Of a stretch of 64,000 nt of DNA, positions 4,501-63,884 are shown piece by piece. The stretch's first letter is position 1. Each line of letters starts with the position of its first letter. The notes under the pieces were generated by a model. It was not told where the DNA came from and did no database searches. It saw only the letters and a list, made by a program, of their open reading frames with translations. Made by a program: the position numbers and the translations under genes. Origin of the DNA: Phalacrocorax aristotelis (taxonomy: Eukaryota > Chordata > Aves > Suliformes > Phalacrocoracidae); assembly GCF_949628215.1 (NCBI RefSeq), contig NC_134280.1, forward strand, positions 52,292,621 to 52,356,620, in the 5' to 3' direction.

Positions 4501-5465
4501 GAAAAGCTACTTAGCATATTGCTGGTAATGTCAAGTAAAGATAAATGTGTATTAACAAGCCCCTCTCTATATAAGAATAGTAATATCTTTATTAGATACC
4601 AATTACTAAACACACATAGTATGGTTATATTTGTATAATAACAGGTAACTAAGAAAACAGATGTGTGTTTGTAAAGGTTGTATGCATATGAGCATGACTA
4701 TGTATATGTAAAATAAAAGTGGAATATACGTGCAGGAAGTTTGGTTCCTTATAAACAAGGAAATGAGATCGCTTTGGCAAGTTGTAAAGTCGGCAGCTGA
4801 TGTTGGGAAATCTATTTGCAACCCAACTTTATTGATTTTTATCATGTAATGATTTCTGATCATCCTGTACGTCAGATTTGTAGTCATTTCTTAGGCATTT
4901 CAGCCCCTTAACAGAAAAATATTAAACAGAGAGCAAAGGGGATAATTAAAGTTTTTATTCCATCCTTAGAAAGAGGAGGTGTAATGAGAAGGAGGCTATG
5001 CTTTTGTACCAATAAAAGGCTAATTTAGTACAGCTTAACCCTTTGTACTGTTCAGTGTGTCTGAAGCACTCCAGTATGCAGAGCTGTGAATTTCTGCCTC
5101 TCCTAACACAATACAGAGTTTCATAAAGCGGTCAAAATTAAAACGTAGAAAATGCAGATCATCACAGTTGAAAGCAAGTTCTTACGATCTAACTATCCTG
5201 ATTTTGAATTGTAGTATGCACTTTAACCTGATCCATGGCCTGTAAAATGGCATTTACATTGCACGTACAACAAAACAGGCCATGAAACATGTTTCATTGG
5301 ATCTGGCATATTAACTTTCTAGTCCTTTCTAGGTCAACTTTAGGTGCAAATTTTGGTATTCTTTTACCAGGTTTTGTTTTCTTTCTTTCTTCTTTCTAGC
5401 TTCCGCTACAGTTTCATCTAAGGTGAACATCATTCAGCCAATGCTGATAAATCCAGTAGTAACAC
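1577..5465 (+). CDS. MUC5B: MUC5B exons 1-3: signal peptide and N-terminal linker
   Basis: Exons 1577-1649, 4365-4433 and 5400-5465 encode residues 1-69. The start has a hydrophobic core ([17 protein letters not shown]), with likely signal-peptidase cleavage after AQA near residue 28. A Gln/Thr/Ser-rich linker follows and leads into VWD1. All three exons end in phase 1. Exons 2 and 3 are tiny and their assignment rests on phase, good splice sites and linker composition rather than strong homology, so they are the least certain N-terminal exons. An apparent ORF continuing to 1813 simply reads through the first donor. Confidence 0.7.
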
Positions 5466-11400: not shown

Positions 11401-14400
11401 TCAAACTACAGCTTGAGGGGTAAACATTAGCAAAATAGCTGAACCTAACATCACTTAATTTCTTTTACTCTGGACTACTGTTACTTATTTCAGCTAGCTT
11501 TATTATCTCTGTTCCAGTACCTGTAATGGAGGCCAGTGGAATTGCCAAGACTTGTCATGCCCAGGAACATGTTCAGTAGAGGGAGGTTCACACATTTCCA
11601 CATACGATAAAAAACATTACGATCACCATGGAGACTGCACTTATGTCCTTTCTAAGGTGGGAATCAGATATTTCTGGGTCATAAAGACTTATACATACAT
11701 AGAAAGAAAAGGTGATCTCATTCAACACCTTTGAAACTCACCTCTTTTGACATACAGATGTTAAATTGCTTCTCACTTAACCAGATGTTTACTAGAACAT
11801 ATGCTGCCATTCAAATTACAACGATCTGTTAACTCTTAGGATGCCATGCAACAGTGTATGGTGTTAACTGGGGAATTTCCAGTTCTATGATGTAGTAGTT
11901 GCTGAAGAGCACTGCCTTAAGAACTTGCTTAGTCTACATTCTTAAGTGTGATTAATCCAGTTTTCTTATGGAGTTGCATAATTTTCTGCCATGTTTTTTT
12001 ATTACATGGTATTGGGCCAAATGCTACAAGTCTGAAAAATTACACCAACTGCTCTGAAAAAAAAAATTGAATTTATGAGACTAGTATTTTTATTTCATTT
12101 CTGGGAAGTTCAAATAGAGAAAATCAGTTCAAGTCAACTGATATCTTTCATTTAGGTTCTAAATATTTTAAAACAGATTTAAAAATAAGTCAAAAGAAAT
12201 AGAAAAATTAATTATAATAAAAATATTTAATTACAGCAATGTGCAAATTAAAAGTTTTGATCTTTTAGGGGCTTTTTCTGTTCTTTGCTTTCCTTTTTCC
12301 CCATCTGCACAATTTAGTAAAAAGAAAATGCTGTATGTTGCTGTTCTCCTGAAAAATGTTTTATGTGAAACTTTTGTCTAGCATTGATACCAGCTACAGC
12401 AAGATGACAGATAATGTAGAATTGAATCAAACATTAGAAGTGGGCATGAATAAAAACGCTATATATGGATATCATCAATAAAATGCAAAACTAGATTCTA
12501 ATTCTCTCATTGTTCCTAATATTACACCAGGCAGAACTGAATCTTAGGCTGAAAAAAGCATGGGATTTGGGAGAGTCTGGATCTTCTCCAGAAACAGAAA
12601 TATTTTTTCAGTTGAGAGAAAATTTTACAGGGAAAGCTTCCGTAATTAGTCTTTCATGAAATAACTGTTGGCTTTTTTTTTCAGCACTGTAAAGATGAAA
12701 CATTCACCATCCTGGTAGAACTACGCAAATGTGGCCTAACAGACACTGAGACATGCTTAAAGACAGTGACCCTCAACATGAATAAAGGACAAACTGTAAG
12801 AATGCAAAATAAGCATGGGAGACAACTATTAAAAATATGGGGAGCAAAGAAGCTAGGCCTTAATCAGTCAGAGAACTGCATTTCCCTCTCAAATGGTCAG
12901 CATATGCGATAAGTACATGTTATTTTTAATCAAGTGCAAAGAAATTGGTTTTCTTACAAAAATCAGATCAGCCATAAATTTGGTTTTGTGGAAGCTCATT
13001 AAGAAAAACGTTGTACTCACAAAGCAGAAAAAAAGCTATTTTCTCTGCCAATTAGATGGAAAAAACATGAGTTTTTAGCTTAGAAACTACAACAGTAAGG
13101 GATGTAATTCATCACAAAGATGTGTTCAAGGAAACCAAGATTATGTAATTCTTTTATGGCAGGAAAATGAGTAAAGTGTACAAAGTGGAAAGAGGGAGGA
13201 GGTGAAATCACAAAAAATTACCCTTTTTATCTGTCTTTTTTATTAGTACTACTATTTGGACTATAGTTATCCTTCATGCAGTTGCCTCTCCTCTTCCTTA
13301 TCAGCTCATCGAAGTCAAACCTGATGGTCATGTGTTTGTGAACTCAATCTACACCCAGCTGCCCATCTCAGCAGGTATTTTTTTCTCTAACAGTCCATGA
13401 GCAATAAGCTCAGAACTTCAACTCCACACCTGCTTATTTACTTAAACTATGGAAGATAAAAGGACAGCGAGTTCTTCAGAACCTGTATGTTCACACCTTT
13501 GTTCTCTTTGGGATATTTCCTGAGTCACACAAGGGCTTTTGAAGCAGAAGTGGGAATTTTGGTGTCAAAAATGGGAGATAGTACAAGCATAAGCAAGAGT
13601 TCAAACAGAAGCAAAAAGCATTTACACTCCCCTGATTTCATCACTGTAAAGTTTACTTCCTTCTCGCTGTCCAAAATTGAACCAAAGACATCTGTTTACC
13701 TCTTTTTTTTTTAAACTTACCACCTGTGCTCACACTTCCTCAGACAGAGATTTGATTTTTATTCTATCTCAATAACTAATGATTCTATGTGATAACTCTG
13801 ACCTCCACATCCGCTTAGTTTCCCTCTTCAGAGGAATAAGGGCTCCAATGTATGCTGTACGAGCTTAGAAACAACAATCAAAGTGTTCTTTTCAATGCTC
13901 AATGCCATACAGTTTTTCCTCGTTGTTCTCTTGGAAGGAGTAATCTTCAACTGCTTAATGTCAAGACAGCAAATAAAGTTAACCATTTGGTAGCTACAAG
14001 CAAATTCTGAACTGTAATTTTTTATTTATATTTCTGATTTATTTTCATAAATATTGGCTTTATTTCACCTCAGAATTTGCAACAATTGCAATAGAAATTC
14101 AAGAATAATAGTATAATAATGCGCTGTTTCTAGCATTTCACCTCATTCAGAAAGTGATCATTCTGTTGTTCACCTGTAGCTAATGTCACTGTGTTCAGAC
14201 CTTCATCATTCTTCATCATCATGCAGACGAACTTTGGTGTCCACCTTGAAATCCAAATCACACCTATCATGCAAGTGTTTGTGCGACTGGATCCTATTTT
14301 CAAAGACCAGACCTGTGGTAAGTGAATGAAGTATAAGAATATCTTGCTTAATGTCTTTTGTCTAGTATAAGCAGTATAAAATTTTCACTGCTTTTCAACA

Positions 14401-17400
14401 GGTCTCTGTGGAAATTTCAATAATATCCAAACTGATGACTTCAAGGCCATAAATGGAATAATTGAAGGAACGGCAACAGCATTTGCTCATACATGGAAAA
14501 CTCAGGCTGCGTGCCCTAATATCCAGCACAGTTTTGAGAACCCTTGTGCACTCAGCATTGATAATGGTGCGTGCTTCTTAGAATTTTTTCTAGGTTTTTT
14601 TTTGCTCATCCCTAAGGAAAACACATCCGTTGAAAAGCAAAGATAAGAGAGTAAAGATTTACATCTGAAATCAGAAATAAATATTCAAAATGGAAGCACT
14701 AGGGATAAGTACAAAGTGAAGGAAGAGTCATAGAAACATAACTGAAGGAAACTGTATGGTCTTTGAAAACAAAGAGGATGTCTAAGCTGACAACTTGGTG
14801 TCAGAGGAGTGGATTGCAGGAGTATCTTTGGAAATCTTCTATTCTTCCCCTTCAACAGGTCCTCTTCTTTGGTTTTAGGAAACTTAGCCCACAAGCTGAG
14901 TGAAAAAAAGACAGGAGAAGGAGACATTTTATGTAATTTCAGAACTGGCTTCATAGACCAGAGCAGTGTGCTTTTGTGACTAATGAAATACAAAGAGTAA
15001 CGTGCATTCATATTGTTTGTTGTTTTCACAGAAAAATATGCTCAGCATTGGTGTGGACTACTAACTGACAGCAAAGGACCTTTTGCTGATTGTCACTATG
15101 CAGTGAATCCCTCTGTTTACCACACGGTACTTTGTTAGACTGTTTTTCCCTTTATAAACAATAGAAATAGGATCATTACAACTAGCTACCAGAAAAGGAC
15201 CATTCCAGACATGTCTCGTCTCATGCAATGCCTGTATTTTCATTTCTGTACTGCAGCACTTCCTTCTTTCAGCATGTGTTTCTGTTTGTGCTATAACGTT
15301 ACCTTATTTCAGTTGTCAGTCTTGGCTTCAAGAGCCTGACTTGCTTGCAAATGAAAAGGCAGCTATTTACTTCTGGATGGTTATACATATATAGCAGGAA
15401 GCATATGTAAAGTATCATCAGCGTATGTAAAGTCTCATCAGCCTTGTACCTCATTAATAACTACTTGGCACAGAAAGCCCATTAGCTAATTACCATCATT
15501 CTGCTATCAATGTGTTGCCAATCATTCTCACTATGAATCATCCAGGTATGGCCACTGGCGAAATGACATGTCTAGACTGCATACTGTGAATAGAGCTTTG
15601 TATGCTATTGTGCAGCATATTTGTAAATACAGTTCAAAGGAACATGAAGCTGTTAAATGTATAACAGACTTTAAGACCACCATTTCCCAATAATAACTGC
15701 AGACATTGACTGAATTTCCATTACATTCGCTTTCCCCTGCCAGGAGTCTTAGACAAAGACTGGAAAGTGATAAAGCTGTGTTGGTGTTGTCTATGAGTGA
15801 GCGTATCTGAATAAAGATTAGTGCATAAGACCAGAAAGATAATGTTGACTTTTTTTAAAAATTGACAATATTACCAGTGCTGAGACTTCATTTTTCTCTG
15901 CATTCTTAGAACTGCATGTATGACACATGTAATTGTGAAATGAGTGAGGACTGTCTGTGTGCAGCCTTGTCTTCCTATGTGAGAGCTTGTGCTGCAAAAG
16001 GAATCCAGCTGCATGGATGGAGGACTGATGTCTGCTGTAAGTATTCTTAACTATCCCCATTCCTAAGAACACACATCAATAAAAACTGCTGATCAGAGAT
16101 TATTTTAAACTGATTTCTAGACAAATATACTAAGTGTTGAGGAAGGGATTTTGTTAAGTGCACTCCTGGAAGTAATTTTTTGCTGTTCCCTTAGAATCAA
16201 TCCATTGCTAGCACGAGCAAATACGAATAGATAGGAGAAATAGCTTGCTTAGGAAAGCAAGTTATGGAAGTGCCTCCACCTGTTTCTTTGCAACTTTGAA
16301 TTTCACTACAACTTTATGTATCACAAGTTATTGTAGACAAAATGTGACATATTACAATAACAGTACTAGTAACACTAACCAGAACACTTGCAAATGGAAG
16401 GTCTCTGAAGCTGCATGCTAGGTTCCACTGATCCAGTAGGGCTGTTTTCAGCATACCAGGAGGCATTCAGGGAGTGATCTTGCCTCGTACTTCAAAAGGT
16501 TTAGAAGTCTCGACAATGAACGGCAGCACCAAATGGAGGTTTCTTTCCAAAATGTCATTTGAAAACGTATTTTCTTCTTTGCATACATCACTTATTCCAT
16601 TTGTACAGTAGCTTTTTACGTCTAACTCTGGAAGTATTCAGAAATACATTTACATGAAAGATGCAACATAGGCAGAGGTGTACAGTATCATTCACAAGTT
16701 ATTTCTACTGCCTATGGTTTCTTATTTGCCCACCAGAAATTACCATCTGGGATTAACAAATCTATTATTTTTCTTCTCTCAAGCAAAATACACCATGTCA
16801 TGTCCCAAATCCCTAAGCTACAGCTATACCATCTCTTCCTGTCAACCCACTTGTCGGTCTCTGAGTGAGCCTGATGTCACATGCAACATTAAGTTTGTCC
16901 CAGTTGATGGCTGCACCTGTGTAAATGGAACCTACATGGATGAGAGTGGCAAATGTGTGCCTGCTAATGAATGCCCCTGCTACTACAGAGGATCTCCCAT
17001 ATCGGTTGGAGAAGTTGTCCATGAAAATGGGCTTGTATGGTAAGTGAATCTTTTGCAAAACACTCGGGAATTGTATATGTTTTCCCATTAAAATCTGTTA
17101 CGTTTAAACTGGTCTCACCCTGCCTTCGCTGAATTTCAATACAATGCTCTCACTTTTTTCAGCTTTATTTTCAACTCTTAAGAATGGTACATATTCCCCT
17201 GAGCCGCAGAGATGGGGAGCAGAATGAAGCCCCTGTATTCTAAGGGGAAGTGAGTGACCTGCTACACCACTTAGACACACACAAGTTGATGGGGCTGGAT
17301 GGGATACACATAATGGTAATGAGGGAGCTGGCAGAAGTGCTCACCAAGCCCCTTTCCATCATTTGTCAGCAGTCCTGGCTAACCAGGGAGGTCCCAGTTA

Positions 17401-23400: not shown

Positions 23401-26400
23401 TTCTACCAACCCCTACCGAAAGTCCTGGTCAGAGAAGCAGTGTAGCATCATCAACAGCAACATCTTTGCTGCCTGTCACTCTCAGGTATTACCAGGAGAG
23501 AAGCTTACTGTATGAAGACTGGGTCTGTGCATTATTGAATTCATTAGCATGTTTCACTTTGAATTGTGTCAGGAAAACTTCAATCTAAATCCTACTCAAT
23601 GGGACAGCTCTATAGTCCCTACCTGTAAGAAACAAAAGTACATGTAGTTCGTAGGAAATATTGACCTATTATGAAAGAATAATTATTTCATAAGTACTAT
23701 GTATTTTCTTGTAGTGTCACTTGAATAAAAATTCTCATATACCATGTATAGAATCAGCATAGCCTTTATCGGACACTGAGGGCATACCAAACAACGCAGG
23801 GTAACTGTGTTCTTCATATTACTTTACTTCTTTCTACTGGCAGAGTCCTTCATTTTCTATCAGTTGCCTAATGTTGCTTGGGAACATGAATCTAATTGTC
23901 CACTAGAACACAAGTCTGCGTGTCAAAAAATCTGTCAATATGTGATTTGGATGTACCATCTGGCATCACCTCTGGTGTTTGTGTATAGAAACAAAAGAAA
24001 AAGAAATTACTGATGTAAACCTTTCTTCCGAGATATAACAATTTGAAGAAAATTGCCCTAACAAAGCTAAGAAAGAATTTAGAAGGCAGGATGTATAGTA
24101 TCACACTTCTTTTTAATAACAGGTTGAACCAGCAAAATATTACCAAGCATGTGTGACAGATGCTTGTGCCTGTGACACTGGAGGAGACTGTGATTGCTTT
24201 TGTACAGCAGTAGCTGCCTACGCTCAAGCATGTAGTGAAGTTGGTGTCTGCATAGCCTGGAGAACCCCATCAATCTGTCGTGAGTTTTATGTCATAAACA
24301 TTTCTTCTGAGAGAGTAGTTCAATGTACAGTGTCCTGCTCATGTCCTTGAACATACACTCTGGGTGTCTTACATATGTGTATTATAATCTCACTGTGTAG
24401 ACTTTTCACACTAAGCTGTTTTGATGGTTGCATGATTTCACCTATTCATTGACTGTTTTCAAGACTGTTCAAGCAGCATTGCAGGGATATGATGAAGAGA
24501 CATGAGTCAAAAATAAAGCTTTTATTCCTCAACATGTCCAAATCTCTGTTTCTCCTTAGCACTGTTCTGTGATTACTACAATCAACAAGGGGAATGTGAA
24601 TGGCACTACAAACCTTGTGGAGCCTCCTGTATGAAGACCTGTAGGAACCCAAGTGGAAAATGCCTCCATAACTTGCCAGGCTTAGAAGGTAAAAAGAGCT
24701 GCAAGTACCTCTAAGTGGGTACATTTTATTATATTTTTAATGGTCTTTAATGGAATGTATTTCCCCCATCAGCTGCATTTGCACCATTCAATTGTCTTCA
24801 ACATCATTGCATCCATGTGAATGGAGACAGAGTATGGAAACTGGAGTTGAAAACAGCTCTAGGACTAAGTCCTTATGGGTGGGCTCTGCTGATGCTAGTA
24901 CTCTGCATTACTTCCTAGACTTATTGGAAAAAATTAAGTAGTAAAAATTATGACTGTTAAAAGCAAGACCTGCAAACACATTCTGCACAAATAAAACATT
25001 TGCTGACCGTATCTCATCCTCACCTTTTCTATCTTCTATATGCCTTTCTACATTTTCCTTCCTCCAGGCTGCTACCCTAACTGCCCACCTGACAAGCCAT
25101 ATTTTCATGAGGATCAGATGAAGTGTGTCAGTCTCTGTGACTGTTATGATAATGAGGATGGAAAGATATATAGACGGGATGAATGTAATTTATGGTAAGA
25201 TTTAACATACCAGCTTAATCATGTACAAGGAAAAATTATCAAAACAGCAGTGGGAAACAGCATGTTCCTGTTACATAACAGGACTAGTTTATGCTGCCTG
25301 TGTAAAAATAACATCTTACCATCTAATGCCATTTTTCTTACTACAATAGTAGTAAGAAGTTCTTATGTGATTTTATGTTCTGTTGAATTTGTTCCTGATT
25401 ATGTTGTAAATCCTCAGCATAAAAATACAAGAACAGTAAGTCCTTTATGACCAAGTTTTCTCTATTTCCTGTTCCTATGGCAGGAAAAATATTGTTCCAG
25501 GAATATAGGTATGTAATAGGAGTCTACTTCCAAGGATTTTATTACATTCTTACACTGCTTGCAGTATTTAGACTCTTCCCCCTTTCAGCCTGCTTTTTAG
25601 TACAAAAACATTGCAAGTGCAAGGAAAGTGCTAAGGAGGAAAGAAGGAAAGTCTTCCTTAAGACTTCTACCTGTAGCTTTGTATAATACTTAGCTTCACT
25701 TCCATTTATAAATTTGGGTTTAATATAAAGAAACATTTTGGGAAACAATGACAAAAAAAGAAGCCAACATGAACTGGATACTCAAGGAATAAACACAAAT
25801 AAAGTGTCCTGTCTTTTGATGCTAGAATTGGCATGAATATGACTAATAAAATTACTTCATAATCAAAAATATGTGGGTTTCTGTGTTTTTCATTTCAGTG
25901 AATGCACAGCAGAAGGTTTACAGTGCCAGTTTGATGACAAAGGTAAGACAACTAAGAAGAATTATTAAGAAAATTAAATATGGGATAGTATCTTTTCATA
26001 GATGCCTGACAAACTTCTGAATTACAGTATGCTACTGCATTTATGATGGAAACAGCTACAAATATGGTCAACTCATCTACAACACCGCAGATGGATTTGG
26101 ATGGTGTTTCAGTGCAACATGTGATGTCAATGGAACAATAAACAGAAATATCTTTAAATGTGGCATCTCTACAACACCGACCTCTTCTATACTTTCTACA
26201 ATTCAGCCCCAAACCACTGCTTCAGGTATGTATGAATGCTTTTTAAAATAACCGAAAAATCTCTGGAGGGGACTGAAAATTGCCTGAAAGGGAGGGCTTT
26301 TTCATCAGTTAATGGCATCTAATTTTACTTGAAACTGTTGATTTCTGCTGGAGCCATGAGTTCATCTGGCAGCTTCAGTTGCTAAGATAACCATAATCAA

Positions 26401-32400: not shown

Positions 32401-35400
32401 CACTGTCGTCACCTCCATGACCACAATGAGCTGCCAGCAGCACTGTACCTGGACGCAGTGGTTTGATGTGCATTCCCCTAGCCCTGGTAGCCAAAATGGA
32501 GACATGGAAACATTTGCAAAAATCCGAGCTGCTGGGCATGCACTGTGTGACAAGCCAGAGGACATCAAATGCCGGGCTAAAGATTACCCTGAAAGGAGTC
32601 TGGACCAGCTGGGACAGATAATTGAGTGCAGCCTTGACATTGGGCTTGTGTGCAGAAATAAGGACCAGATCAAAAAGTACCCCATGTGCTTCAACTATGA
32701 GGTCCAGGTGAAGTGCTGTGACAATTACCACTGCCTGCTATCATCAGAAACCACACTCAGCACTGAAGGCTCATCCAGCACAGCCTCTCCTGCAGAAACC
32801 TCCACCATTGCAAAACAGCCTCCAACATCACCCACTACTGCCTCCACCCTCACCCAGACACCAAAAACAACCACCGCCGCCACCACGCTTGTCCACAGTT
32901 CCACTGCACCACCAGCACAAAGAACAACCATCATCACCACAACCAGCGGCTCCAGCACCACCAAGACCTCTACACCTCTGACAGAAAGAACAACCACCAT
33001 CACACCAACGCCAGCAGGGCGCACCCCAACCACTAGCACTGTCAGCACCTCCAGGACTACTATGGCAAGCACCACAACATCCAAAGCCACGTCTGCTCCA
33101 GAAGAAACCTCCACCACCACAACAGAGCCTCCAACATCACCCACTACTGCCTCCACCCTCACCCAGACACCAAAAACAACCACCGCCGCCACCACGCTTG
33201 TCCACAGTTCCACTGCACCACCAGCACAAAGAACAACCATCATCACCACAACCAGCGGCTCCAGCACCACCAAGACCTCTACACCTCTGACAGAAAGAAC
33301 AACCACCATCACACCAACGCCAACACGGCTCACTCCAGCCACTAGCACTGTCAGCACCTCCAGGACTACTATGGCAAGCACCACAACATCCAAAACCACG
33401 TCTGCTCCAGAAGAAACCTCCACCATCGCAACACAGCCTCCAACATCACCCACTACTGCCTCCACCCTCACCCATTCAGGCATTCCAACCAAGATAGGTG
33501 GTTCTATTCTCCCAACATCTGTTTCTTCTACTGGACGAAGTACTGCCACCACTGTGTTTCTCACAAATTTCACAACCACAAGCAGCCCAGGTGTGTCATT
33601 GTCTATCTCTGGAAATGTTTCAAACAGCTATTTCTGTAGAACACAGTTGGGCTCATTGTGTTCTATCACTTCTTCCTCTATACCTATTTCTTCCAACATA
33701 AACCACTTTTTCATCTATCTGTCCCTCTGCTACTAGTATCTGTGTTGGACAAGTATCTGATTGGACTCCATGTCTTGATATTACTTTTCATGAGATCAAG
33801 GGAGACAGTGGTGACTTTAAAACTTTTGAAAACCTTACAGCTACATGTCACAAGATTCGCCAAACCCCAGATGATATTCAGCGTAGAGCTAATAGTTTTA
33901 CACAATATCTATTTAGCAGTAGGTGAAATAGTACAATGTAACAAACATGTTGGCTGTTTTGCCAGAATATTGAACAGTCCTCTCCAATATGATAGTTATG
34001 AGATCAAAAGCTTGTTTTGCAAACTAAAGTATGTCTTGTGCTTAACAGTAGCTACAACTGGTACATCACAATCAAGTCATGTTACAACAAGCACGTCTGC
34101 AATCTTCAGTTCTTTCCCCAGCACACCTGTCACAACAGAAGCAAGTACATATTTCACATCAAGTGGAACAACTCCATGTTTTTGTCATGTGTCTACTAAT
34201 TTTTTTTCTCCTGGTAGGTGTCTTATTTTATGGTTATAAAATTTTCATAAGCAATATAAACCCTTAATACTCTATTCAATTAAAGATAACCCCTTAAAAT
34301 CATCCAAACATAGACCTTTTTATATGTGAATACACTTTATATTTTCTTGGGTTTTTTTTTCTTAAGTATTTTCATTGGTCTTTTAATTTCTCCAATTTTT
34401 CTCCACAGGGGAAGTGGTATACAAGAGAACAGATAAGGCTGGCTGTATTTTTTATGCACTTTGCAGCAAGGAATGTGAAATTGACCCATTTCAGGGGCCA
34501 TGTCCTTCAACAACTCCTTTCACTTCAGTCACCTCAGAAACCACAACACAAGCTGCCTCATCCACAGAACGTGTATTGTCTTCTGTCTCACCAACCACAG
34601 CAACATCCCTCACAACTTCAGTAGAAATAAACTGTACTGATGTCAGTCCTCCACGAAAGGTAGTTCCCCTCATTATTTTCTAATATATCATCATTGCAAA
34701 ACCAGCCCAATTTCTGTCCTTTAACAATCAATTCAAATCAACTTGTACATATTTCAATAAAAAAGTTGGTCACATTACAAATTACATTCTATCACATTCT
34801 ATGACATTTAAATGTCATAGAAATAAGTAGACCAGCTATGAAAGTGTTAAAATCTCATTCCTTCTACACAGAGAAATTTCTGTGATTGTTCTCAGCTTCC
34901 CTGCTCTTAAGGCCTGAAATAATTTGCTAAGAAAACGTTAATCTGAACCCCCTACCAATTTTGAGGGTCTATCTCAAGGTGACCCAGGACAACAAGGGTG
35001 AGAGAACGCTTAAAAATCAATCATTTACGTGTTTTTCAGGCTGGAGAGAACTGGACAAGTAATTGCCAGCAGTGCATCTGTGACCCCTTCACTACTACTG
35101 TAAAATGCGAGCAGCTCCCATGCCAAACAGTTCAGACGCTATTTTGTGACCTAGGATTTGTTGCCATGCCTGTACAACCACAAAAAATACCATGTTGTCC
35201 TGAACTTGAATGCCGTAAGTATTAAAAATACATATATACACACTCTGGTAAATTATATTTGCATCTGTTAATATCTAAGCAAGTTCTTCATGTATCACAA
35301 AAACAGTAGTAGCTTCCTTAAATTGTTCTGTCTCAGCAAACACGCATCAATTTTTGACTAAATATGCATCAGAATTTTATTTAAAAACAAAGCGTTGTTT

Positions 35401-38400
35401 TCAATGAAGTTTGCTGAGAGAATTGGAATGGGTGGGAGAGCAGGATAGTACTTTGAACCTTCAAGTGGTCTATGTAGCTCAACTACCTCTGTATCTGTAC
35501 TCATAAAGGTTATTAATGCATTTTATTTAATATTTTTATTTAACTGTAGCTAAACTAGGATGCATAAACATAAAAATAAACCAGCAGAAATCTTAACTGC
35601 AAAAGCAAGTAACACAAAGCAATACAAAGTAACTGAATTGTCAGTGCATGAAAATTAATATAGTTACACTGTTGTTGAATGCTCATGAAAATTTAAAAAT
35701 CCAAGTTACATATGCTTATTTGTATACATACATTTTTATATACATATATTTTTATACACATATACTTATATGTGTATTTAAAAAGGTAGCTATAAATTAA
35801 GCCCAAAATGGGAAGATCAAAACAAAGGAACAGCCAAGTTTGAAGTAGTTCTGTGAAAGACATGAATAGGCTCTATTGTATTATAAAATTATTTATACGA
35901 CCACAATAAGAATACCTTTTTCCCACTCCGAGTCAATCTTCCATTCAAGCCATGTTCTGAGAAGTCACAAAGAAACAATTAGAAAGGCATCTTTGAAGGT
36001 TACTGGACTTCTAGGGTTCAAAGAGGAAATAACTAATTTAATTTGAAGTGAACCTGACTTCGAAAGGGCAAAAAGGGATTCTTCATGTATAGCTCGAGCC
36101 TGAAGCCATTCCTTCTCAACTCTTCTAGCTAATTACAAAGATGAAACTTTACTTAAACATCCAGCTATACTAAATATGAGGTCTAAGCACGTACTGGGGA
36201 TTCAAGTTTTCCATATCTCTGTGTTACTAAAACAAACCTTGATAACATCTGGACTTCTCAGGAAGTCTCACATCTGAGTTTACACTGAAATTATTTTTTT
36301 CTTTGTTTTTCAGGTCGAATACCTGGAACCTGTAATATTAATGGTACAATATACATGGTGAGAATGTTATAGTGGTATATTGCTGAAAGTGAAATCTACA
36401 CCTTTCCTAAAATCAGCCTTTGAGAAAGTTCTTTTCCCAGTATATGCTGTTCTTATCTCTAGCCCTTAACTGGAACTTATTTTTTTCCTAATGTCAAAAA
36501 AAAAAAAAAATTGTCACCAAAGAGTTCCTCAACATGTAGTGTAAAACAAGAGTATACCATTTTTAGTGACATACTTAGTTTTTAAGCTCTCTCCCACTTC
36601 TGGAATTAATGAATTTTCCAAACAAGCTGATGAATAGCCCAAACTCAATAATTCTTTGAAATAAGCCCAGAGAACCTTCAAACATAAAGCTAGGATTTTT
36701 GCTTAAATCTTCTGCTAAAATTGGTACTTAGGTCATTTAGCCAAAATGTAAACATTAGCTCTGGAGCCTTTTGGGTTCAGTTTTCTCAAAAACTGAGTTT
36801 TCACTTGTTGAAATTAATGTTTTGAATTGATGAACATATCATCATGTGTGTGTTTTTCACATGATGAAACATATCATGTGGTTGACATGATCATGTCACA
36901 TGACATCACAATGTCATGAAATGAACATTTGAATTTTGAAAAAAACAGAAATTCCAGAACGACTAAAATCCCTTTGTTAATTTGTATCTCTGCTCATGTA
37001 TCTGCATAGGTATCCAATTGATTTAATCACCATTTGTTAATTATAATTTTTATAACTACTGAACATGACTTACAGGGAAAAAAAATCTTAAATGGAGCAT
37101 TGAAAAGCTGGTAAAATAATGAGGCAGTACAAACCAGTCTTACCTGCATTTTATTAATTTACTTTTCTTTTTTATAGTGCTTCATTAGTTTCATCCCGAT
37201 GTATGTTTTCTTGCAAGACATAAAGCCAAACAACTTTATCTTGTTCAAAGATAGTTGAACAACTCAGTCACACGTGCATTTCAACAACCTTAATGGTTCT
37301 CACCAAGGCTTTCAACTCTGCCTATACATTATATAGAAATGAGTATCTTTTCTTTCTGTCTTCCAGGTTGGAATGTCAACAGTAATCAAACCATGTAAGA
37401 ATTGTACCTGCACTTCTGAGGAAGATAAAGCAGCTGGGGGGAATATTGTGCATTGTGAACCAATTAATTGTAGCACATCTTGCCCACCGGTGAGTTCAGA
37501 TTCTCTAGGCTGCAGAGTCACCCCTCAATTACAAGACGACTAGAATTCTCCATCACCAACTCAACAAAATTTCTCTTTCATCTCCTTGTGGGTAGGGTTA
37601 TCAATATGTGACTGAGGATGGAGAGTGCTGTGGGAAGTGTATTCAGATAGCTTGCCAAGTCAAACTCAGTAACAACACTATTCATGTGCTCCAGGTAAGT
37701 ATTCCTGTCATTTTCAGATCTCCGTATTAGGCAGTACAGGTTAGAACAGCTAGGAGTCAACTCATGACCCCTACTAGTAAAAATCTAATTAACACTGAAA
37801 ACAAGACACCAGTTTTCCAAATTCAACATTTACTTGGAATAACAAATTATTGATACATGTGGTTAACTGGGCAATGGTTTCTCATTTGTGGTCTGACTGT
37901 TCAGGTACAGGACTTAAACTTTTAAGCTAGCCACAGTTTGCAAAATTTTGCTTTTGTCACTTGAAAGATGTTCAGAAGCATGTGAGAATCTTTCACATGT
38001 GAGAACTTATTTAGCTCAGATGTTTTTGAACTAATCACACTATACCTGATCACAAAAAAAATATTTTCTTTTCTTACAAAAATCTTAGGTTAATGAGACC
38101 ATGTCACTCGATCATTGCAGCCATTACAAATGTGAAAAAATTGAAGATCAGTTTGTTGCAGTCCAAACTAAAAGAATATGCCCCGAGTACAACCCAGGAG
38201 AGTGCGATCCTGTAAGTTTTAATCAATTATTCATCGATTGAATGCAGTTTATAAGAAAAAGGGGAGGGTGGACAAGGAATAATAAAACAAATCGCTTTCA
38301 CTGAAGGTATAGGAATGCCTTAAGAATGAAATCAACCTTGCTGTAACAAGGTAAGTAAGTAATCCAAAGCTTCATTTAGTGTATATCACAGAGGAGCCTT

Positions 38401-40922
38401 CTGCCCAGTATCAGTAATGCCAACTCATATTCTTACTCATGATTGACATCTGTGCATTAATACATTCTTGCCTCTTTACTTCTACAAAGGAGGAAGCAGA
38501 CACTACTCCTGACGGCTGCTGCAAAATATGTAAACGTAAGTAATGCTGTGTTCTGCTTGGAGTGCTATATTCAATTTCTGTCTCTGAGTAGATGGAAGGA
38601 TTCTTCACTCCTCCAGTTTTCACTTATTCTATTTATCAAGACCCCACGTTTCACTGATTATTGAAGAGCAAAAAGCAAATTTGTTTTCTTGATACTGAAT
38701 ACCACAGCTCAAACCACAAATGCTTAAGCCTCTGCATTATCTTCCAAAGACACTGTAAAGCAGAATAACCTGAAAACTCCAGATACATTACACAGTATCC
38801 TCTTGCCAATGTCACATACCTCAGTGTCTCAATAATCAGACATTATGCACTTGGAAATTGTTTTAGCATTCTTTTAGTTCTGAACTAGAGATTTGAAGCA
38901 TATATTTTTCCCCCCCTCTTCTTATGAAGCTGCCACCTGTAAACCTTACAGCAAAAAATCTGTGATCCACCACGGTGACTGTGAATCTTCTGAACCTGTT
39001 GAGCTCGCGTATTGTGAAGGAAGTTGTCCTGGCTCATCAGTGTAAGTTCCAAAAACTTAACTTAGCATCTCTATGGCTTCATTTATACTAACAGTCTCTC
39101 AAGTTAATCAATACACAAGGGGGTTTCCATCAGCTCCCTCAGTACCTTTCCATCATTTGTCAGCAGTCCTGGCTAACCAGGGAGGTCCCAGTTAAATGGA
39201 GGGTAGCAAATGTGACACCCATCTAACAAGAAGGGCTGGAAGGAGAATCCAGGGAACTACAGGCCTGTCAGCCTGACCTCGGTCCTGGGAAGGTTATGGA
39301 GCAGATCATCATGAGTGCCATCACACAGCACATACTGAACAACCAGGTGATCAGGCCCAGTCACCAGGGGTTTAGAAAAGGCAGGTCCTGATGGACTAAC
39401 CTGATCTCCTTCTATGACAAGGGGACCCACTTAGCAGACGAGGAAAAGGCTGTGGATGTTGTTTACCTGAACTTTAGTAAAGCCTTTGACTCTGTTCCCA
39501 CAACATTCTCCTTGAGAAACTGGCTGCTCATGGCTTGGAGGGGCATACTCTTCACTGGGTTAAAAAACTGGCTGGATGGCCAGGCCCAGAGTTGTGGTGA
39601 ATGGAGTTAACTCCTGTTGGTGGCCGGTCACAAGTGGTGTTCCCCAGGGCTCAGTACTGGAGCCAGTTCTGTTTAATATCTTTATCAATGATCTGGATGA
39701 GGGGATCAAGTGCACCCTCAGTAAATTTGCAGACAACACAAAGTTGGGCGGGAGTGTTGATCTGCTGGAGGGTAGGAAGGCTGTACAGAGGAATCTGGAC
39801 AGGTTGAATCAATGGCCTGAGGTCAATTGTATGAGGTTCAACAAGGCCAAGGGCCAGCAGGAGTAGGGAAGTGATTGTCCCCCTGTACTCGGCACTGGAG
39901 AGGCCACACCTCAAATACTGTGTTCCGTTTTGGGCCCCTCACTACAAGAAAGACATTGAGCTACTGGAGCATGTCCAGAGACGGGCAATGAAGCTGGTGA
40001 AGGTTCTGGAGAACAAGGCTTATGAGGAGCAGCTGAGGGAGGTGGGATTTTTTAGCCTGGAGAAAAGGAGGCTGAGGGGAGACTTTATCACTCCCTACAG
40101 CTACCTGAAAGGAGGTTGTAGTGAGGTGGGTGTTGGTCTCTTCTCCCAAGTAACAAGTGATATGATGAGAAGAAACAGCCTCAAGTTGTACAAGGAGAGG
40201 TTTAGATTGGATATTAGGAAAAATTTCTTCACTGAAGGGGTTGTCAGGAATTGGATCAGGCTTCCCAGGGAAGTGGTTGAGTCACCATCCCTGATGGTGT
40301 ATTTAAAAGATATTTAAAAGATGTGTAAATGTGGCACTTAGGTACATGGTTTAGTGGTGGACTTGGTGGTTCAAGATTTACAGTTGGACTTGATCTTAAG
40401 GGTCTTTTCCAATCAAAATGATTCTATGATTACAGAATGGCAACAAAATTAATGTGTTCATATGGTTTCACTGAGTGGCCTGAGACTCAATGGAAACAGG
40501 AACAGTTTCACTATTGAAGAGACACGTAATTAAAATCACATTTGTAAGTGTGTGTGGGAGGGACGAAGAGAGGATGGAAAAAACACACCACACTCCCAAA
40601 GCCCCCAACAAAGCCCAAAACAAAAGTCATGGAGGGTGGTGTGTGGGGTGGGGGTTCTGTGTCGGTTTTTAATGAGAAGATGTATTTTCTTTTCCTGGCG
40701 GAACACAGGTATTCTCTTGAAACAAACCTGATGCAACGTGAGTGTAGTTGCTGCCAGGAGTTCAGCAGCCATACAAGAGATGTGACCCTGACCTGCCAAA
40801 ATGGGACAAGCATAAATTATAAGTATATCTATGTGGAACAATGCCAGTGTATGAATGCATGCACTTCAGAATCCTCTGCAGCACATGGCTTCCAATGGAA
40901 AAATCAGCAAATCAGAAGATAG
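1577..40922 (+). CDS. MUC5B: Gel-forming secreted mucin, MUC5B orthologue lacking D4 (41 exons, complete)
   Basis: Exons: 1577-1649, 4365-4433, 5400-5465, 5925-6186, 6593-6707, 7346-7436, 8274-8383, 8593-8809, 9994-10119, 10593-10710, 11518-11656, 12685-12795, 13305-13374, 14180-14317, 14402-14566, 15032-15126, 15910-16036, 16784-17039, 18979-19031, 19416-19516, 20357-20508, 20922-21060, 21147-21260, 21793-21972, 23246-23485, 24123-24279, 24560-24688, 25068-25194, 25899-25942, 26028-26225, 27498-33590, 34049-34213, 34409-34659, 35040-35214, 36314-36357, 37367-37489, 37596-37694, 38089-38211, 38490-38535, 38930-39041, 40709-40922. Phases agree throughout and I found no internal stop, giving 3,808 residues. 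The product is a disulfide-linked, O-glycosylated mucus polymer secreted by goblet or gland cells. MUC5B rather than MUC5AC is chosen because the gene converges on TOLLIP and because of the D1, CysD1 and C-terminal wording. As I recall, human MUC5B also has 30 exons before its giant exon 31. The human gene has about 18 after it; here there are 10, because D4 is gone. Confidence 0.86.
1650..4364 (+). other. MUC5B intron 1
   Basis: The largest 5' intron (2.7 kb), with donor GTAAGA and acceptor TTCTTCACAG. It is AT-rich and apparently unique sequence. I recognise no repeat element, RNA gene or extra exon in it. Confidence 0.7.
5678..5728. repeat. Small competing inverted repeats in intron 3
   Basis: ATGGGGGTGTAT (5678-5689) is nearly complementary to ATATACCCCCAT (5704-5715). 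The inner TATACCCC of the latter is also perfectly complementary to GGGGTATA (5721-5728). The central C-block can therefore pair with either side. No function is implied. Confidence 0.5.
5925..10710 (+). CDS. MUC5B: MUC5B exons 4-10: D1 assembly (VWD1-C8-TIL-E)
   Basis: Residues 70-415. VWD1 covers exons 4-7 and begins [20 protein letters not shown], the canonical opening; its CGLC motif is at residues 207-210 (exon 6), inside [13 protein letters not shown]8-1 is exon 8 (8593-8809), with paired cysteines and a [10 protein letters not shown] motif typical of MUC5B/5AC. TIL1 is exon 9 (9994-10119). The E-like module is exon 10. D1 and D2 drive pH-dependent N-terminal packing and multimer assembly in the secretory pathway. 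The exon 4 acceptor is the second of two tandem AGs, and the exon 9 donor is GC rather than GT. Exon 7 reads [16 protein letters not shown], very like the MUC5B segment at the same place. Confidence 0.88.
9365..9614 (+). mobile_element. Solo LTR, ERVK/alpharetrovirus-like, in MUC5B intron 8
   Basis: A 250-bp element running TGTAGGGG...GCAACA, flanked by a perfect 6-bp target-site duplication AATGAT (9359-9364 and 9615-9620). It contains a U3-type TATA box TATATAAG (9466-9473) and an R/U5-like AATAAA (9489-9494) in the gene's sense orientation. Six-bp duplications are characteristic of ERVK/alpharetrovirus-like elements of birds. No internal viral genes remain, so this is a recombined solo LTR, and GC content is higher than in the flanks. 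The class assignment rests on TSD length and size, not on a database match. Confidence 0.82.
11518..17039 (+). CDS. MUC5B: MUC5B exons 11-18: D2 assembly (VWD2-C8-TIL)
   Basis: Residues 416-782. VWD2 opens in exon 11 ([20 protein letters not shown]) and runs through exons 12-15, with the CGLC motif split across exons 14 and 15 (residues 568-571, CGLCGNFNN). C8-2 is exons 16-17 (15032-15126 and 15910-16036). TIL2 is exon 18 (16784-17039), with [15 protein letters not shown] and CTCVNGTY. Cysteine spacing matches the D2 of gel-forming mucins. All junctions are GT-AG. Introns 11 (11657-12684) and 17 (16037-16783) show no recognisable repeat. Confidence 0.88.
17215..18633 (+). mobile_element. CR1 LINE, copy 1, in MUC5B intron 18
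   Basis: A 5'-truncated CR1 retrotransposon in the gene's sense orientation. Broken reading frames encode reverse-transcriptase signatures ([20 protein letters not shown], then FADNTKLGG with a D-to-N change in the FADD box). The 3' tail ends in tandem ATTCTATG units near 18610-18633. Compared with CR1 as I remember it, a segment is missing around 18060, where coding jumps from NKAKG to the distal RT/C-terminal region. Several stops and frameshifts make it inactive. The left boundary is approximate. It is almost identical over 17351-18422 to the copy at 39145-40216. Confidence 0.9.
18979..20508 (+). CDS. MUC5B: MUC5B exons 19-21: D' region (E2/TIL')
   Basis: Residues 783-884. Exon 19 (18979-19031) is only 53 nt and completes the cysteine-rich E module ([18 protein letters not shown]). 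Exon 20 (19416-19516) starts the TIL' module, and exon 21 (20357-20508) completes it ([15 protein letters not shown] and [16 protein letters not shown]). D' lacks a VWD fold of its own and works together with D3 in N-terminal covalent multimerisation. Exon 19 sits directly downstream of the intron that carries CR1 copy 1. Confidence 0.85.
20922..25194 (+). CDS. MUC5B: MUC5B exons 22-28: D3 assembly (VWD3-C8-TIL)
   Basis: Residues 885-1246. VWD3 begins in exon 22 ([20 protein letters not shown]) and ends in exon 25, with CGLC at residues 1033-1036 (CGLCGNYDG). C8-3 spans exons 25-26 (23246-23485 and 24123-24279), with [23 protein letters not shown]3 spans exons 27-28 (24560-24688 and 25068-25194). 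D3 cysteines form the inter-chain bonds that polymerise the mucin at its N-terminus. The VWD3 entry is GDGH rather than the cleavable GDPH, as expected for D3. Intron 24 (21973-23245, 1.27 kb) contains nothing I recognise. Confidence 0.9.
25899..26225 (+). CDS. MUC5B: MUC5B exons 29-30: cysteine-rich linker into the mucin domain
   Basis: Residues 1247-1327. Exon 29 (25899-25942) is 44 nt. Exon 30 (26028-26225) carries [20 protein letters not shown] and [12 protein letters not shown], which matches the segment just before the central region of MUC5B/5AC. It then changes to a Thr/Ser/Pro-rich tail. It ends in phase 1 (GCTTCAG|GTATGT), matching the giant exon. Confidence 0.85.
26226..27497 (+). 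other. MUC5B intron 30
   Basis: A 1.27-kb intron preceding the giant exon. It is AT-rich, with a TATA/ATAAATAT-rich stretch around 26990-27080, and no recognisable element or coding sequence was seen. Confidence 0.65.
27498..33590 (+). CDS. MUC5B: MUC5B giant central exon 31: CysD domains and PTS repeats
   Basis: A single 6,093-bp open exon encodes residues 1328-3358 with no stop. It holds CysD1, two PTS units, CysD2, six PTS units, CysD3, four PTS units, CysD4, and two and a half PTS units. Thr, Ser and Pro dominate the repeats, giving the dense O-glycan attachment region of the mucin. The donor is CCCAG|GTGTGT at 33590/33591 in phase 1. If unspliced, the frame would hit TAG at 33734-33736 after a non-mucin-like stretch, so use of this donor seems required. 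It corresponds to the single large central exon of mammalian MUC5B. Long antisense ORFs over it are by-products of the repeat. Confidence 0.9.
27530..27829 (+). other. MUC5B: CysD domain 1 (divergent)
   Basis: About 100 residues from [14 protein letters not shown] to ILCCSYIPC, with the WxxW motif (WSEW) at the start. It is clearly different from the three downstream CysDs and closest to the first CysD of MUC5B ([14 protein letters not shown] and [11 protein letters not shown]). CysD modules make non-covalent contacts between mucin chains and separate the glycosylated segments. Confidence 0.9.
28670..28972 (+). other. MUC5B: CysD domain 2
   Basis: [16 protein letters not shown] to VKCCDNYHC, with an intact WTQW motif and all expected cysteines. 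By eye it differs from CysD3 and CysD4 at three nucleotides only: a silent C/T in the HSP codon region, a silent G/A in ETF, and CCG/CTG just after the terminal cysteine. Confidence 0.92.
30860..31162 (+). other. MUC5B: CysD domain 3
   Basis: Same sequence as CysD2 at the protein level, 2,190 bp further on. It appears identical at the nucleotide level to CysD4. It separates the six-unit and four-unit PTS segments. Confidence 0.92.
32432..32734 (+). other. MUC5B: CysD domain 4
   Basis: Identical by eye to CysD3, 1,572 bp further on. It is the last intact CysD; downstream only a decayed relative remains (33738-34035). Confidence 0.92.
33738..34035 (+). pseudogene. Decayed fifth CysD within predicted intron 31
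   Basis: Translating from 33738 gives [15 protein letters not shown], then [12 protein letters not shown] and [10 protein letters not shown], a recognisable CysD. The second Trp of WxxW has become Cys and the QCRA cysteine is Arg. A frame change around 33905-33920 is needed to continue into [13 protein letters not shown] and [15 protein letters not shown], where the terminal CC is also lost. The upstream exon-31 frame is out of register and stops at 33734-33736. Flanking splice sites (donor 33591, acceptor ending 34048) remove it and keep phase 1. It looks like ancestral exon-31 sequence that has decayed. Confidence 0.82.
34049..34659 (+). CDS. MUC5B: MUC5B exons 32-33: CFC/FFSPG module and Thr/Ser linker
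   Basis: Residues 3359-3497. Exon 32 (34049-34213) is Ser/Thr-rich and ends [16 protein letters not shown]. Exon 33 (34409-34659) continues [18 protein letters not shown] and [16 protein letters not shown], matching human MUC5B just before D4 (CFCRAFGQFFSPGEVIYNKT). It closes with a Thr/Ser linker and [10 protein letters not shown]. In other MUC5B proteins the D4 assembly follows this point; here the next exon is already a VWC module. Exon 32 may be the 3' end of what was originally exon 31. Confidence 0.85.
35040..38535 (+). CDS. MUC5B: MUC5B exons 34-39: VWC modules
   Basis: Exons 35040-35214, 36314-36357, 37367-37489, 37596-37694, 38089-38211 and 38490-38535; residues 3498-3700. The first ([14 protein letters not shown] to PCCPELEC) matches the VWC that follows D4 in human MUC5B (GERWVSNCQSCVCD to NPCCPETVC). 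Exons 35-37 give [19 protein letters not shown] and [10 protein letters not shown]. Exons 38-39 give [15 protein letters not shown] and DGCCKIC. A small cysteine-rich segment that I recall between the first and second VWC of human MUC5B (CNTTTCPQ-like) is not found between 35215 and 36313. Confidence 0.87.
35215..36313 (+). other. MUC5B intron 34
   Basis: A 1.1-kb intron with an AT-rich TATACATA/TATGTGTAT stretch at about 35700-35785. I found no extra VWC-like exon, although human MUC5B would have one at this place. Confidence 0.6.
36841..36918. repeat. Cluster of short perfect palindromes in intron 35
   Basis: ATCATGTG (36841-36848), CACATGAT (36858-36865) and ATCATGTG (36873-36880) can pair in alternation. 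They are followed by a 14-bp perfect palindrome GACATGATCATGTC (36884-36897), then CATGACAT (36899-36906) with ATGTCATG (36911-36918). Nearly every base from 36858 to 36918 lies in an inverted repeat arm or a short loop. Confidence 0.85.
38930..40922 (+). CDS. MUC5B: MUC5B exons 40-41: C-terminal cystine knot
   Basis: Exons 38930-39041 and 40709-40922; residues 3701-3808. The CK domain runs from [16 protein letters not shown] through [21 protein letters not shown] and [10 protein letters not shown] to [10 protein letters not shown], with the full cysteine pattern of CK domains that form C-terminal mucin dimers in the ER. A short basic tail ends QQIRR and stop TAG at 40920-40922. The intervening intron holds the second CR1 copy. 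Retention of CK means dimerisation should still work despite loss of D4. Confidence 0.92.
39145..40435 (+). mobile_element. CR1 LINE, copy 2, in MUC5B intron 40
   Basis: Sense-oriented, 5'-truncated CR1. From 39145 to 40216 it matches copy 1 (offset 21,794) with no indel and a single difference found by eye (A at 39327 versus G at 17533). Downstream of 40217 the two copies differ at many positions, with indels. The end carries GATTCTATGAT. The same broken RT frames and the same internal junction near 39854 occur in both copies. It is inactive. Confidence 0.9.
40583..40654. other. G-rich tract with complementary upstream arm near the last acceptor
   Basis: A tract at 40631-40654 on the + strand contains four G-runs (GGAGGGTGG... 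then GGGGTGGGGG), a possible G-quadruplex. Its TGGTGTGT is complementary to ACACACCA at 40583-40590, with further G:C pairs beyond. It ends 54 bp before the final coding exon of MUC5B, between the CR1 insertion and the acceptor. Confidence 0.5.

Positions 40923-52433: not shown

Positions 52434-63884
<11,451 letters not shown>

What the first reader, a model, noticed from the sequence alone, without database searches (positions are those of the whole stretch)
34409..35214. MUC5B-class mucin that has lost the entire D4 assembly
Exon 33 ends in the segment that precedes D4 in human MUC5B ([25 protein letters not shown]). Exon 34, only 380 bp later, encodes the VWC that follows D4 ([14 protein letters not shown]). 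No VWD4, C8-4, TIL4 or GDPH sequence exists between them or elsewhere downstream. The junction is phase 0 to phase 0, so the protein stays in frame with CK intact. The joint may be a chimeric VWC made from pre-D4 and post-D4 halves, possible if both introns shared phase. MUC6 and MUC19 also lack D4, so this would be convergent loss. It should remove the GDPH autoproteolysis site and alter C-terminal packing.
Basis: partly seen in the sequence, partly recalled or inferred. Interest (0 to 1): 0.8.

Follow-up and report, generated by a model that had tools for sequence, protein, structure and literature searches.

The report
Bird MUC5B mucin missing D4
Birds have lost a large folded block (the D4 assembly) from the tail of one of their main mucus proteins, leaving two half-domains fused into one; this was reported for chicken in 2006, and here it is seen in every informative bird, so it seems older than living birds.

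Summary
Exon 33 (34409-34659) ends with the segment that precedes D4. After a gap-free 380-bp intron, exon 34 (35040-35214) begins inside the VWC that follows D4. No D4 remnant was found in the window. By locus (beside TOLLIP) and D3 the gene is the sauropsid MUC5B, from a cormorant or close relative.

An assembly error is very unlikely. All 29 bird MUC5B-type proteins (28 species, a rhea included) that hold both flanking modules lack D4; 28 of 29 show the identical join. All 15 crocodilian, turtle and squamate MUC5B-like proteins compared keep D4. The loss therefore lies on the bird stem lineage.

The joint is a hybrid VWC: ten residues of the pre-D4 VWCN, then the body of the post-D4 VWC1, with ten cysteines in 29 of 29 rows. 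The half-module VWC' is gone too.

The parts
3273..5464 (+). first exons of the gene according to the cormorant model P0023 (start codon not verified)
   Evidence: tblastn with P0023, 83-95% identity
5921..10130 (+). D1 region exons (VWD1 from 5921, C8-1 at 8533-8814, TIL1 at 9984-10130)
   Evidence: tblastn with P0023, 81-98% identity, matches under 80% left out; introns included in the span
11471..17037 (+). D2 region exons (VWD2 to TIL2)
   Evidence: tblastn with P0023 and P0018
18980..25192 (+). D' and D3 region exons
   Evidence: tblastn with P0023; D3 exons closest to reptile MUC5B-like
25900..26230 (+). two exons after D3, before the PTS exon
   Evidence: tblastn with P0023
27494..33590 (+). 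large central PTS exon with four intact CysD domains and a 309-bp tandem repeat
   Evidence: open frame, Tandem Repeats Finder, CysD copies, donor after CCAG at 33590
34049..34213 (+). short exon after the PTS exon, ends [16 protein letters not shown] (out phase 1)
   Evidence: splice sites and frame; same junction in Spheniscus P0001 and Theristicus P0013
34409..34659 (+). exon 33: pre-D4 module plus first ten residues ([10 protein letters not shown]) of the former VWCN domain, out phase 0
34660..35039 (+). 380-bp intron where D4-bearing relatives carry the D4-coding region; no N, no D4 remnant found
35040..35214 (+). exon 34: body of the post-D4 VWC1 domain, in phase 0, out phase 1
36314..36357 (+). 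exon 35 ([14 protein letters not shown]): start of VWC3; the VWC' expected before it is absent
37367..37489 (+). exon 36, VWC3
37596..37694 (+). exon 37, end of VWC3 and start of VWC4
38089..38211 (+). exon 38, VWC4
38490..38535 (+). exon 39, end of VWC4
38930..39041 (+). exon 40, cystine knot, first part
40709..40922 (+). exon 41, cystine knot, second part, and stop codon TAG
52437..52697 (-). TOLLIP exon with the CUE domain and the end of the protein, the neighbour that marks the MUC5B position; other TOLLIP exons were not sought
   Evidence: human Toll-interacting protein 1wgl, E 6.3e-22

Best explanation
This is the bird MUC5B. On the bird stem lineage, after the split from crocodilians and before the split of palaeognaths from neognaths, the exons from the second exon of VWCN through VWD4, C8 and TIL to the first exon of VWC1 were lost, most simply as one block. 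The block was bounded by phase-0 introns at matching places in two paralogous VWC modules, so the reading frame and a full ten-cysteine VWC survived as a hybrid (VWCN start plus VWC1 body). The half-module VWC' was lost as well. The protein should still dimerise through its CK in the ER and multimerise through D3 in the Golgi. Its C-terminal dimer should be a plain stalk (hybrid VWC, VWC3, VWC4, CK) without the globular T-shaped D4 base. The two N-leaf interfaces of VWCN and VWC1 would be reduced to one, contacts between VWC1 and VWD4 lost, and any D4-borne contact between C-terminus and N-terminus in granules lost. Proteolysis at GDPH should not change, because the nearest D4-bearing relatives have no such site. 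Shown here: anatomy, grouping with reptile MUC5B-like genes, sharing by every informative bird, hybrid sequence. Inferred: the exon phases in D4-bearing relatives, the single-block deletion, and every functional consequence.
For: Junction and open frame. 29 of 29 bird proteins with both modules have 41-55 residues between the two profile matches and no VWD4; in 28 of 29 the join is direct, and in one (Poecile, P0091) six extra residues stand at the joint. 0 of 44 bird MUC5B-type proteins has VWD4 or VWC', 15 of these 44 being uninformative models. 15 of 15 crocodilian, turtle and squamate MUC5B-like proteins compared have VWD4. Classed by D3 alone, 30 of 30 bird proteins nearest reptile MUC5B-like lack D4, while 11 of 11 nearest turtle MUC5AC and 6 of 6 nearest MUC2 have it. 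D1-D3 tree: bird MUC5B one clade at 100/100, next to crocodilians at 94/95. Hybrid: the left 11 residues score 30-38 against reptile VWCN and -1.5 to 7.5 against VWC1; the right part 132-191.5 against VWC1 and 21.5-34.5 against VWCN, in 5 of 5 reptiles compared. Ten cysteines in 29 of 29 rows, the window and 28 birds. Pfam: 3 VWD and 3 C8 in cormorant and loon against 4 and 4 in Chinese alligator, gharial and penguin MUC5AC. TOLLIP neighbour. [quoted passage not shown] 2006). Interface roles of VWCN and VWC1 in MUC2 (PMC10082768).
Against: Most comparisons rest on predicted proteins, not transcripts. The cormorant model P0023 itself skips exon 34 and joins exon 33 to exon 35 in another frame, so use of exon 34 in cormorants is inferred from splice sites and from 28 other species. 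15 of 44 bird proteins lack one flanking module and say nothing about the join. The D1-D3 tree does not tie the sauropsid MUC5B clade to mammal MUC5B: mammal MUC5B groups with mammal MUC5AC at 83/83, so the link to human MUC5B rests on the locus and the literature. D3 margins between MUC5B and MUC5AC references are small (15-47 bits). The crocodilian-bird node is just under the tool's star. Several profile seeds come from the proteins then counted. Exon phases of D4-bearing relatives were read only indirectly from turtle gene models (P0012, P0038). The predicted structure is weak: mean pLDDT 47.8, 56-82 over the hybrid VWC, 72-88 in most of the CK but 40-41 in its middle.
Confidence: 0.85

Rival explanations
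1. Assembly artefact: the D4 exons exist but were lost by a misjoin or collapsed gap at 34660-35039.
For: Mucin loci are repetitive and hard to assemble; several bird gene models skip exons here.
Against: No N in the window; the same in-frame join in 28 other bird species, one with six extra residues; a 2006 statement of the same absence in chicken.
Confidence: 0.02
2. The gene is a different mucin that never had D4, such as MUC19 or a MUC6-like gene.
For: MUC6 lacks VWD4; databases name bird copies mucin-2-like, mucin-5AC-like and mucin-5B-like; the D1-D3 tree does not join sauropsid to mammal MUC5B.
Against: TOLLIP neighbour; D3 and the D1-D3 tree place it with reptile MUC5B-like genes that have D4; it keeps CysD, VWC and the pre-D4 module. 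MUC19 was not compared directly.
Confidence: 0.02
3. The gene is decaying, and loss of D4 is one sign of that.
For: A broken CysD relic lies in the intron just upstream at 33732-34040.
Against: 449-aa open tail with good splice sites; ten cysteines conserved in 29 of 29 rows; CK intact; 2089-codon open PTS frame; Lang et al. list EST support for 11 of 37 chicken Muc5b exons.
Confidence: 0.03
4. Two or more steps instead of one block deletion: D4 first degenerated or was skipped in splicing, and exons were removed piecemeal later.
For: The GDPH site is already degenerate in reptile MUC5B-like D4; VWC' was lost too, so more than one change occurred.
Against: No intermediate seen: no bird MUC5B-type protein in the set shows a D4 match. 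The bird stem has no living side branch, so this cannot be excluded.
Confidence: 0.3

Closest known systems
Chicken Muc5b (Lang, Hansson and Samuelsson 2006, PMC1552070)
   Same: MUC5B position in the mucin cluster; three N-terminal VWDs, CysD/PTS, CK; stated to lack the C-terminal VWD
   Different: The paper names only chicken. In the parts I read (abstract, Results and discussion, legends and table) it does not describe the joint, the hybrid VWC, the loss of VWC' or the timing.
Crocodilian MUC5B-like (Alligator P0035/P0036, Gavialis P0101)
   Same: Closest relatives with D4; same pre-D4 module, VWC1, VWC3, VWC4, CK
   Different: Keep VWCN, VWD4, C8, TIL, complete VWC1 and VWC'
Human MUC5B C-terminus (Ridley et al. 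2019, PMC6851316) and MUC2-C (PMC10082768)
   Same: VWC stalk and CK dimerisation
   Different: Have the globular D4 base; MUC2 also has GDPH and an extra disulfide in VWCN
MUC6
   Same: Gel-forming mucin without D4
   Different: Lacks the VWC domains as well

Membership tests
MUC5B (by descent) | Lies next to TOLLIP in convergent orientation | tested here: met
   TOLLIP CUE exon on the - strand at 52437-52697; mucin on the + strand. That this is the human arrangement is recalled.
MUC5B (by descent) | Groups with sauropsid MUC5B-like genes, not MUC5AC or MUC2 | tested here: met
   Tree with P. carbo as proxy; the window's own D3 pieces: 429 bits to turtle MUC5B-like, 405 to turtle MUC5AC, 309 to MUC2
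MUC5B (by descent) | Groups with mammal MUC5B | tested here: inconclusive
   In the D1-D3 tree mammal MUC5B joins mammal MUC5AC at 83/83, not sauropsid MUC5B
MUC5B domain architecture | CysD and PTS central region | tested here: met
   Pfam PF13330 in P0023
MUC5B domain architecture | VWD4-C8-TIL assembly | tested here: not met
MUC5B domain architecture | VWC1, VWC', VWC3, VWC4, CK | tested here: not met
   VWC' absent, VWC1 hybrid; VWC3, VWC4 and CK present
MUC6-type mucin | No D4 and no VWC before CK | tested here: not met
   VWC present
MUC19 | Sequence and locus of MUC19 | not tested
   No MUC19 sequence was fetched
GDPH-cleaved mucins (MUC2, MUC5AC) | GDPH in D4 | tested here: not met
   No D4; the 15 reptile and 4 mammal MUC5B D4s read have no GDPH

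The most novel reading that the evidence does not exclude
An exon-block deletion on the bird stem fused two paralogous VWC modules through shared phase-0 introns. It gave birds a MUC5B whose tail dimer has one hybrid VWC interface instead of two interfaces around a D4 base: a natural D4 deletion of a gel-forming mucin, older than living birds. That makes the role of D4 in MUC5B packing directly testable by comparing bird with crocodilian.
Probability: 0.65. Interest if true: 0.5.

Novelty: new member of a known kind. Interest (0 to 1): 0.35.

Why it matters
D4 is the globular base of the human MUC5B tail, and a recombinant tail that contains it binds the N-terminal domain at acid pH with calcium (Ridley et al. 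2019), so the tail is thought to help pack mucin in granules. Birds seem to have done without D4, as a group, since before their living lineages split. That is a clean natural comparison for what D4 adds, and it warns against carrying mammalian MUC5B tail models over to poultry. The absence itself was already on record for chicken, which limits the surprise.

Tried and rejected
Tried without result: the genome search on the window's own genome did not complete seven times, so I could not look for D4 exons elsewhere in this assembly. The 2016 paper of Lang et al. on mucin origins is not held. Foldseek of the predicted model showed cystine-knot structures in its 50 listed rows and no VWC match among them, as may be expected from a low-confidence model. 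A first tree dropped 12 of 36 rows through a too narrow pattern and was rebuilt with all 36.

Considered and rejected: assembly gap, MUC19 or MUC6 identity, pseudogene, ancestral absence of D4 (reptile, mammal and amphibian relatives have it). The claim that GDPH was lost was rejected. The risk that I called a bird gene MUC5B because it lacked D4 was tested by classing on D3 alone. Pigeon P0018, which has a VWD and a short match to the query, is a gene model fusing D3 to the CK exon and is no D4 case.

Rows dropped: 15 of 44 bird MUC5B-type proteins from the join count, because a flanking module is missing from the model. The 15 reptile rows were chosen by me; of three further reptile MUC5B-like proteins in the set, P0067 and P0077 have VWD4 and P0012 begins only at VWC1 and is uninformative. 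One search listed 120 of 143 hits, so 23 were not seen. The tree used 36 chosen proteins out of 168. In one search matches under 80% identity were left out.

Full report
What is there. The window carries a gel-forming mucin gene on the + strand. Its D1, D2, D' and D3 exons match the great cormorant protein P0023 (Phalacrocorax carbo) at 81-100%, matches under 80% being left out. P0023 matches the tail at 99% over 53% of the query, so the window is from a cormorant or close relative. A large PTS exon with CysD domains follows, then the tail. Downstream on the - strand lies the CUE exon of TOLLIP, the gene I recall as the neighbour of human MUC5B.

The joint. Exon 33 ends at 34659 with ...[11 protein letters not shown] in phase 0. 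Exon 34 begins at 35040 with [15 protein letters not shown] in phase 0. Between them are 380 bases without N. Spliced from 34049 on, the tail is open for 449 residues to TAG at 40920-40922. Pfam sees VWC and the cystine knot there and no VWD, C8 or TIL. tblastn with four D4 assemblies and two VWC' pieces gave 199 hits up to E 10; none lies in 34660-35039, and the 27 with E below 0.01 fall on the window's own D1-D3 exons and on exon 34.

Is it real? I used all three protein searches, which gave 168 proteins. Home-made profiles for the pre-D4 module, VWD4, VWC1, VWC' and CK were run on all 168; some seeds of these profiles come from the proteins counted. Of 44 bird MUC5B-type proteins from 42 species, 29 from 28 species hold both the pre-D4 module and VWC1. 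All 29 have 41-55 residues between the two profile matches and no VWD4. In 28 the join is direct; in Poecile (P0091) six extra residues stand there, as if a nearby acceptor were used. The other 15 lack one of the two modules and do not inform on the joint. None of the 44 has VWD4 or VWC'. The palaeognath Rhea pennata (P0090) has the same joint. All 15 crocodilian, turtle and squamate MUC5B-like proteins compared have VWD4 after the pre-D4 module (one turtle model, P0038, misses the VWC1 exon). To avoid circular naming I classed bird proteins by D3 alone: 30 of 30 closest to reptile MUC5B-like lack D4, 11 of 11 closest to turtle MUC5AC have it, 6 of 6 closest to MUC2 have it; one bird MUC5AC without D3 could not be classed, and the MUC5B-MUC5AC margins are small, 15-47 bits. 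Pfam agrees on examples: 3 VWD and 3 C8 in cormorant and loon, 4 and 4 in Chinese alligator, gharial and penguin MUC5AC.

Tree. In a 36-protein tree of D1-D3 the nine bird MUC5B rows form one clade at 100/100, the three crocodilians are their sister at 94/95, and all sauropsid MUC5B-like rows join at 95/100, apart from sauropsid MUC5AC. Against a simple story, mammal MUC5B does not join them: it groups with mammal MUC5AC at 83/83. So the name MUC5B for the sauropsid gene rests on the locus and on Lang et al. The loss of D4 within the sauropsid group does not depend on that, and it falls on the bird stem lineage.

The hybrid domain. Reptile VWCN begins C--DPPRK|INETW and reptile VWC1 begins CVGPDGLPR-|PGSKWKSNCQECVCD. 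Birds read NCTDVNPPRK|PGEKWxSECQECVCD. In five reptiles the left 11 residues of the window score 30-38 against VWCN and -1.5 to 7.5 against VWC1; the right part scores 132-191.5 against VWC1 and 21.5-34.5 against VWCN. All ten cysteines of a VWC are kept in 29 of 29 rows, the window and 28 birds. VWC', present in the reptiles, is missing too; the intron after exon 34 holds no hit to it. Two turtle gene models hint that VWC1 splits in phase 0 before PG and that VWC' is a phase 1-1 exon (P0012 starts at that place, P0038 skips between those places); this is indirect.

What it does. In MUC2 the tail dimer is held by the CK and by N-leaf contacts of VWCN and VWC1, with VWC1 also touching VWD4 of the partner (PMC10082768, sections 8 and 9 and passages read). 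The human MUC5B tail binds the N-terminal domain reversibly with calcium at acid pH (PMC6851316, Discussion and passages read); the part responsible was not mapped in what I read. I infer that bird MUC5B dimerises by CK and multimerises by D3 as usual, but with a slender tail, one hybrid N-leaf interface and no D4 base. GDPH cleavage is not affected: human MUC5B has GGSH, and none of 15 reptile and 4 mammal MUC5B D4s read here has GDPH. Several frog and fish proteins named mucin-5B(-like) have GDPH (P0019, P0034, P0043, P0134), so a deeper ancestor may have had it. In reptiles the site is degenerate (GWSNSDY, GWDHYNF and others), so decay of the site came before loss of the domain on the bird line.

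Model. AlphaFold on penguin P0001 with 12 relatives gave pLDDT 56-82 in ten-residue blocks over the hybrid VWC and a mean of 47.8; much of the rest is disordered PTS. It does not contradict a folded hybrid VWC and proves nothing more.

Known or new. Lang, Hansson and Samuelsson 2006 (PMC1552070; [quoted passage not shown] I found no paper in the held library describing the bird-wide sharing, the hybrid VWC, the loss of VWC' or the timing; the searches were made, seen as listings except for the three papers named here. The library lacks most subscription journals and the 2016 overview by Lang and others.

Noticed in passing
33732-34040: Broken CysD relic with stop codons in the intron between the PTS exon and the next exon (33% identical to the first CysD of a trogon protein over 33732-33983; the rest read by eye); the penguin model P0001 also splices across this place.
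   Followed up: partly
28682-28957, 30872-31147, 32444-32719: Three CysD copies with identical protein and about 99.4% identical DNA over 481 bp inside the PTS exon, a sign of recent duplication or homogenisation.
   Followed up: partly
17351-18627 and 39145-40431: Two retroelement copies (CR1-like, name recalled), 96.5% identical and in the same orientation, both in introns of the mucin gene; the second lies between the two CK exons.
   Followed up: partly
P0023 (Phalacrocorax carbo protein): The public cormorant model skips exon 34 and reads exon 35 in another frame (VEYLEPV), and is named mucin-5AC; bird MUC5B copies carry names such as mucin-2, mucin-5AC, mucin-5B and otogelin-like, and one alligator copy is named mucin-6 precursor.
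   Followed up: yes
P0015 (Phoxinus phoxinus): A fish mucin model with a VWCN-like module followed by VWC modules and CK and no D4, a different joint from the bird one; it may be an independent loss or a gene-model error.
   Followed up: no
P0095 (Platysternon megacephalum): One turtle protein named antigen KI-67 holds two D4 assemblies in a row, MUC5AC-like with GDPH and then MUC5B-like without it, probably a fused gene model of the tandem cluster.
   Followed up: no
P0096 and P0099 (frog proteins): Frog MUC5-like proteins with two or three D4 assemblies in one chain, the opposite trend to birds.
   Followed up: no
tree: Mammal MUC5B and mammal MUC5AC group together in D1-D3, apart from sauropsid MUC5B and MUC5AC; gene conversion or separate duplication are possible reasons.
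   Followed up: no
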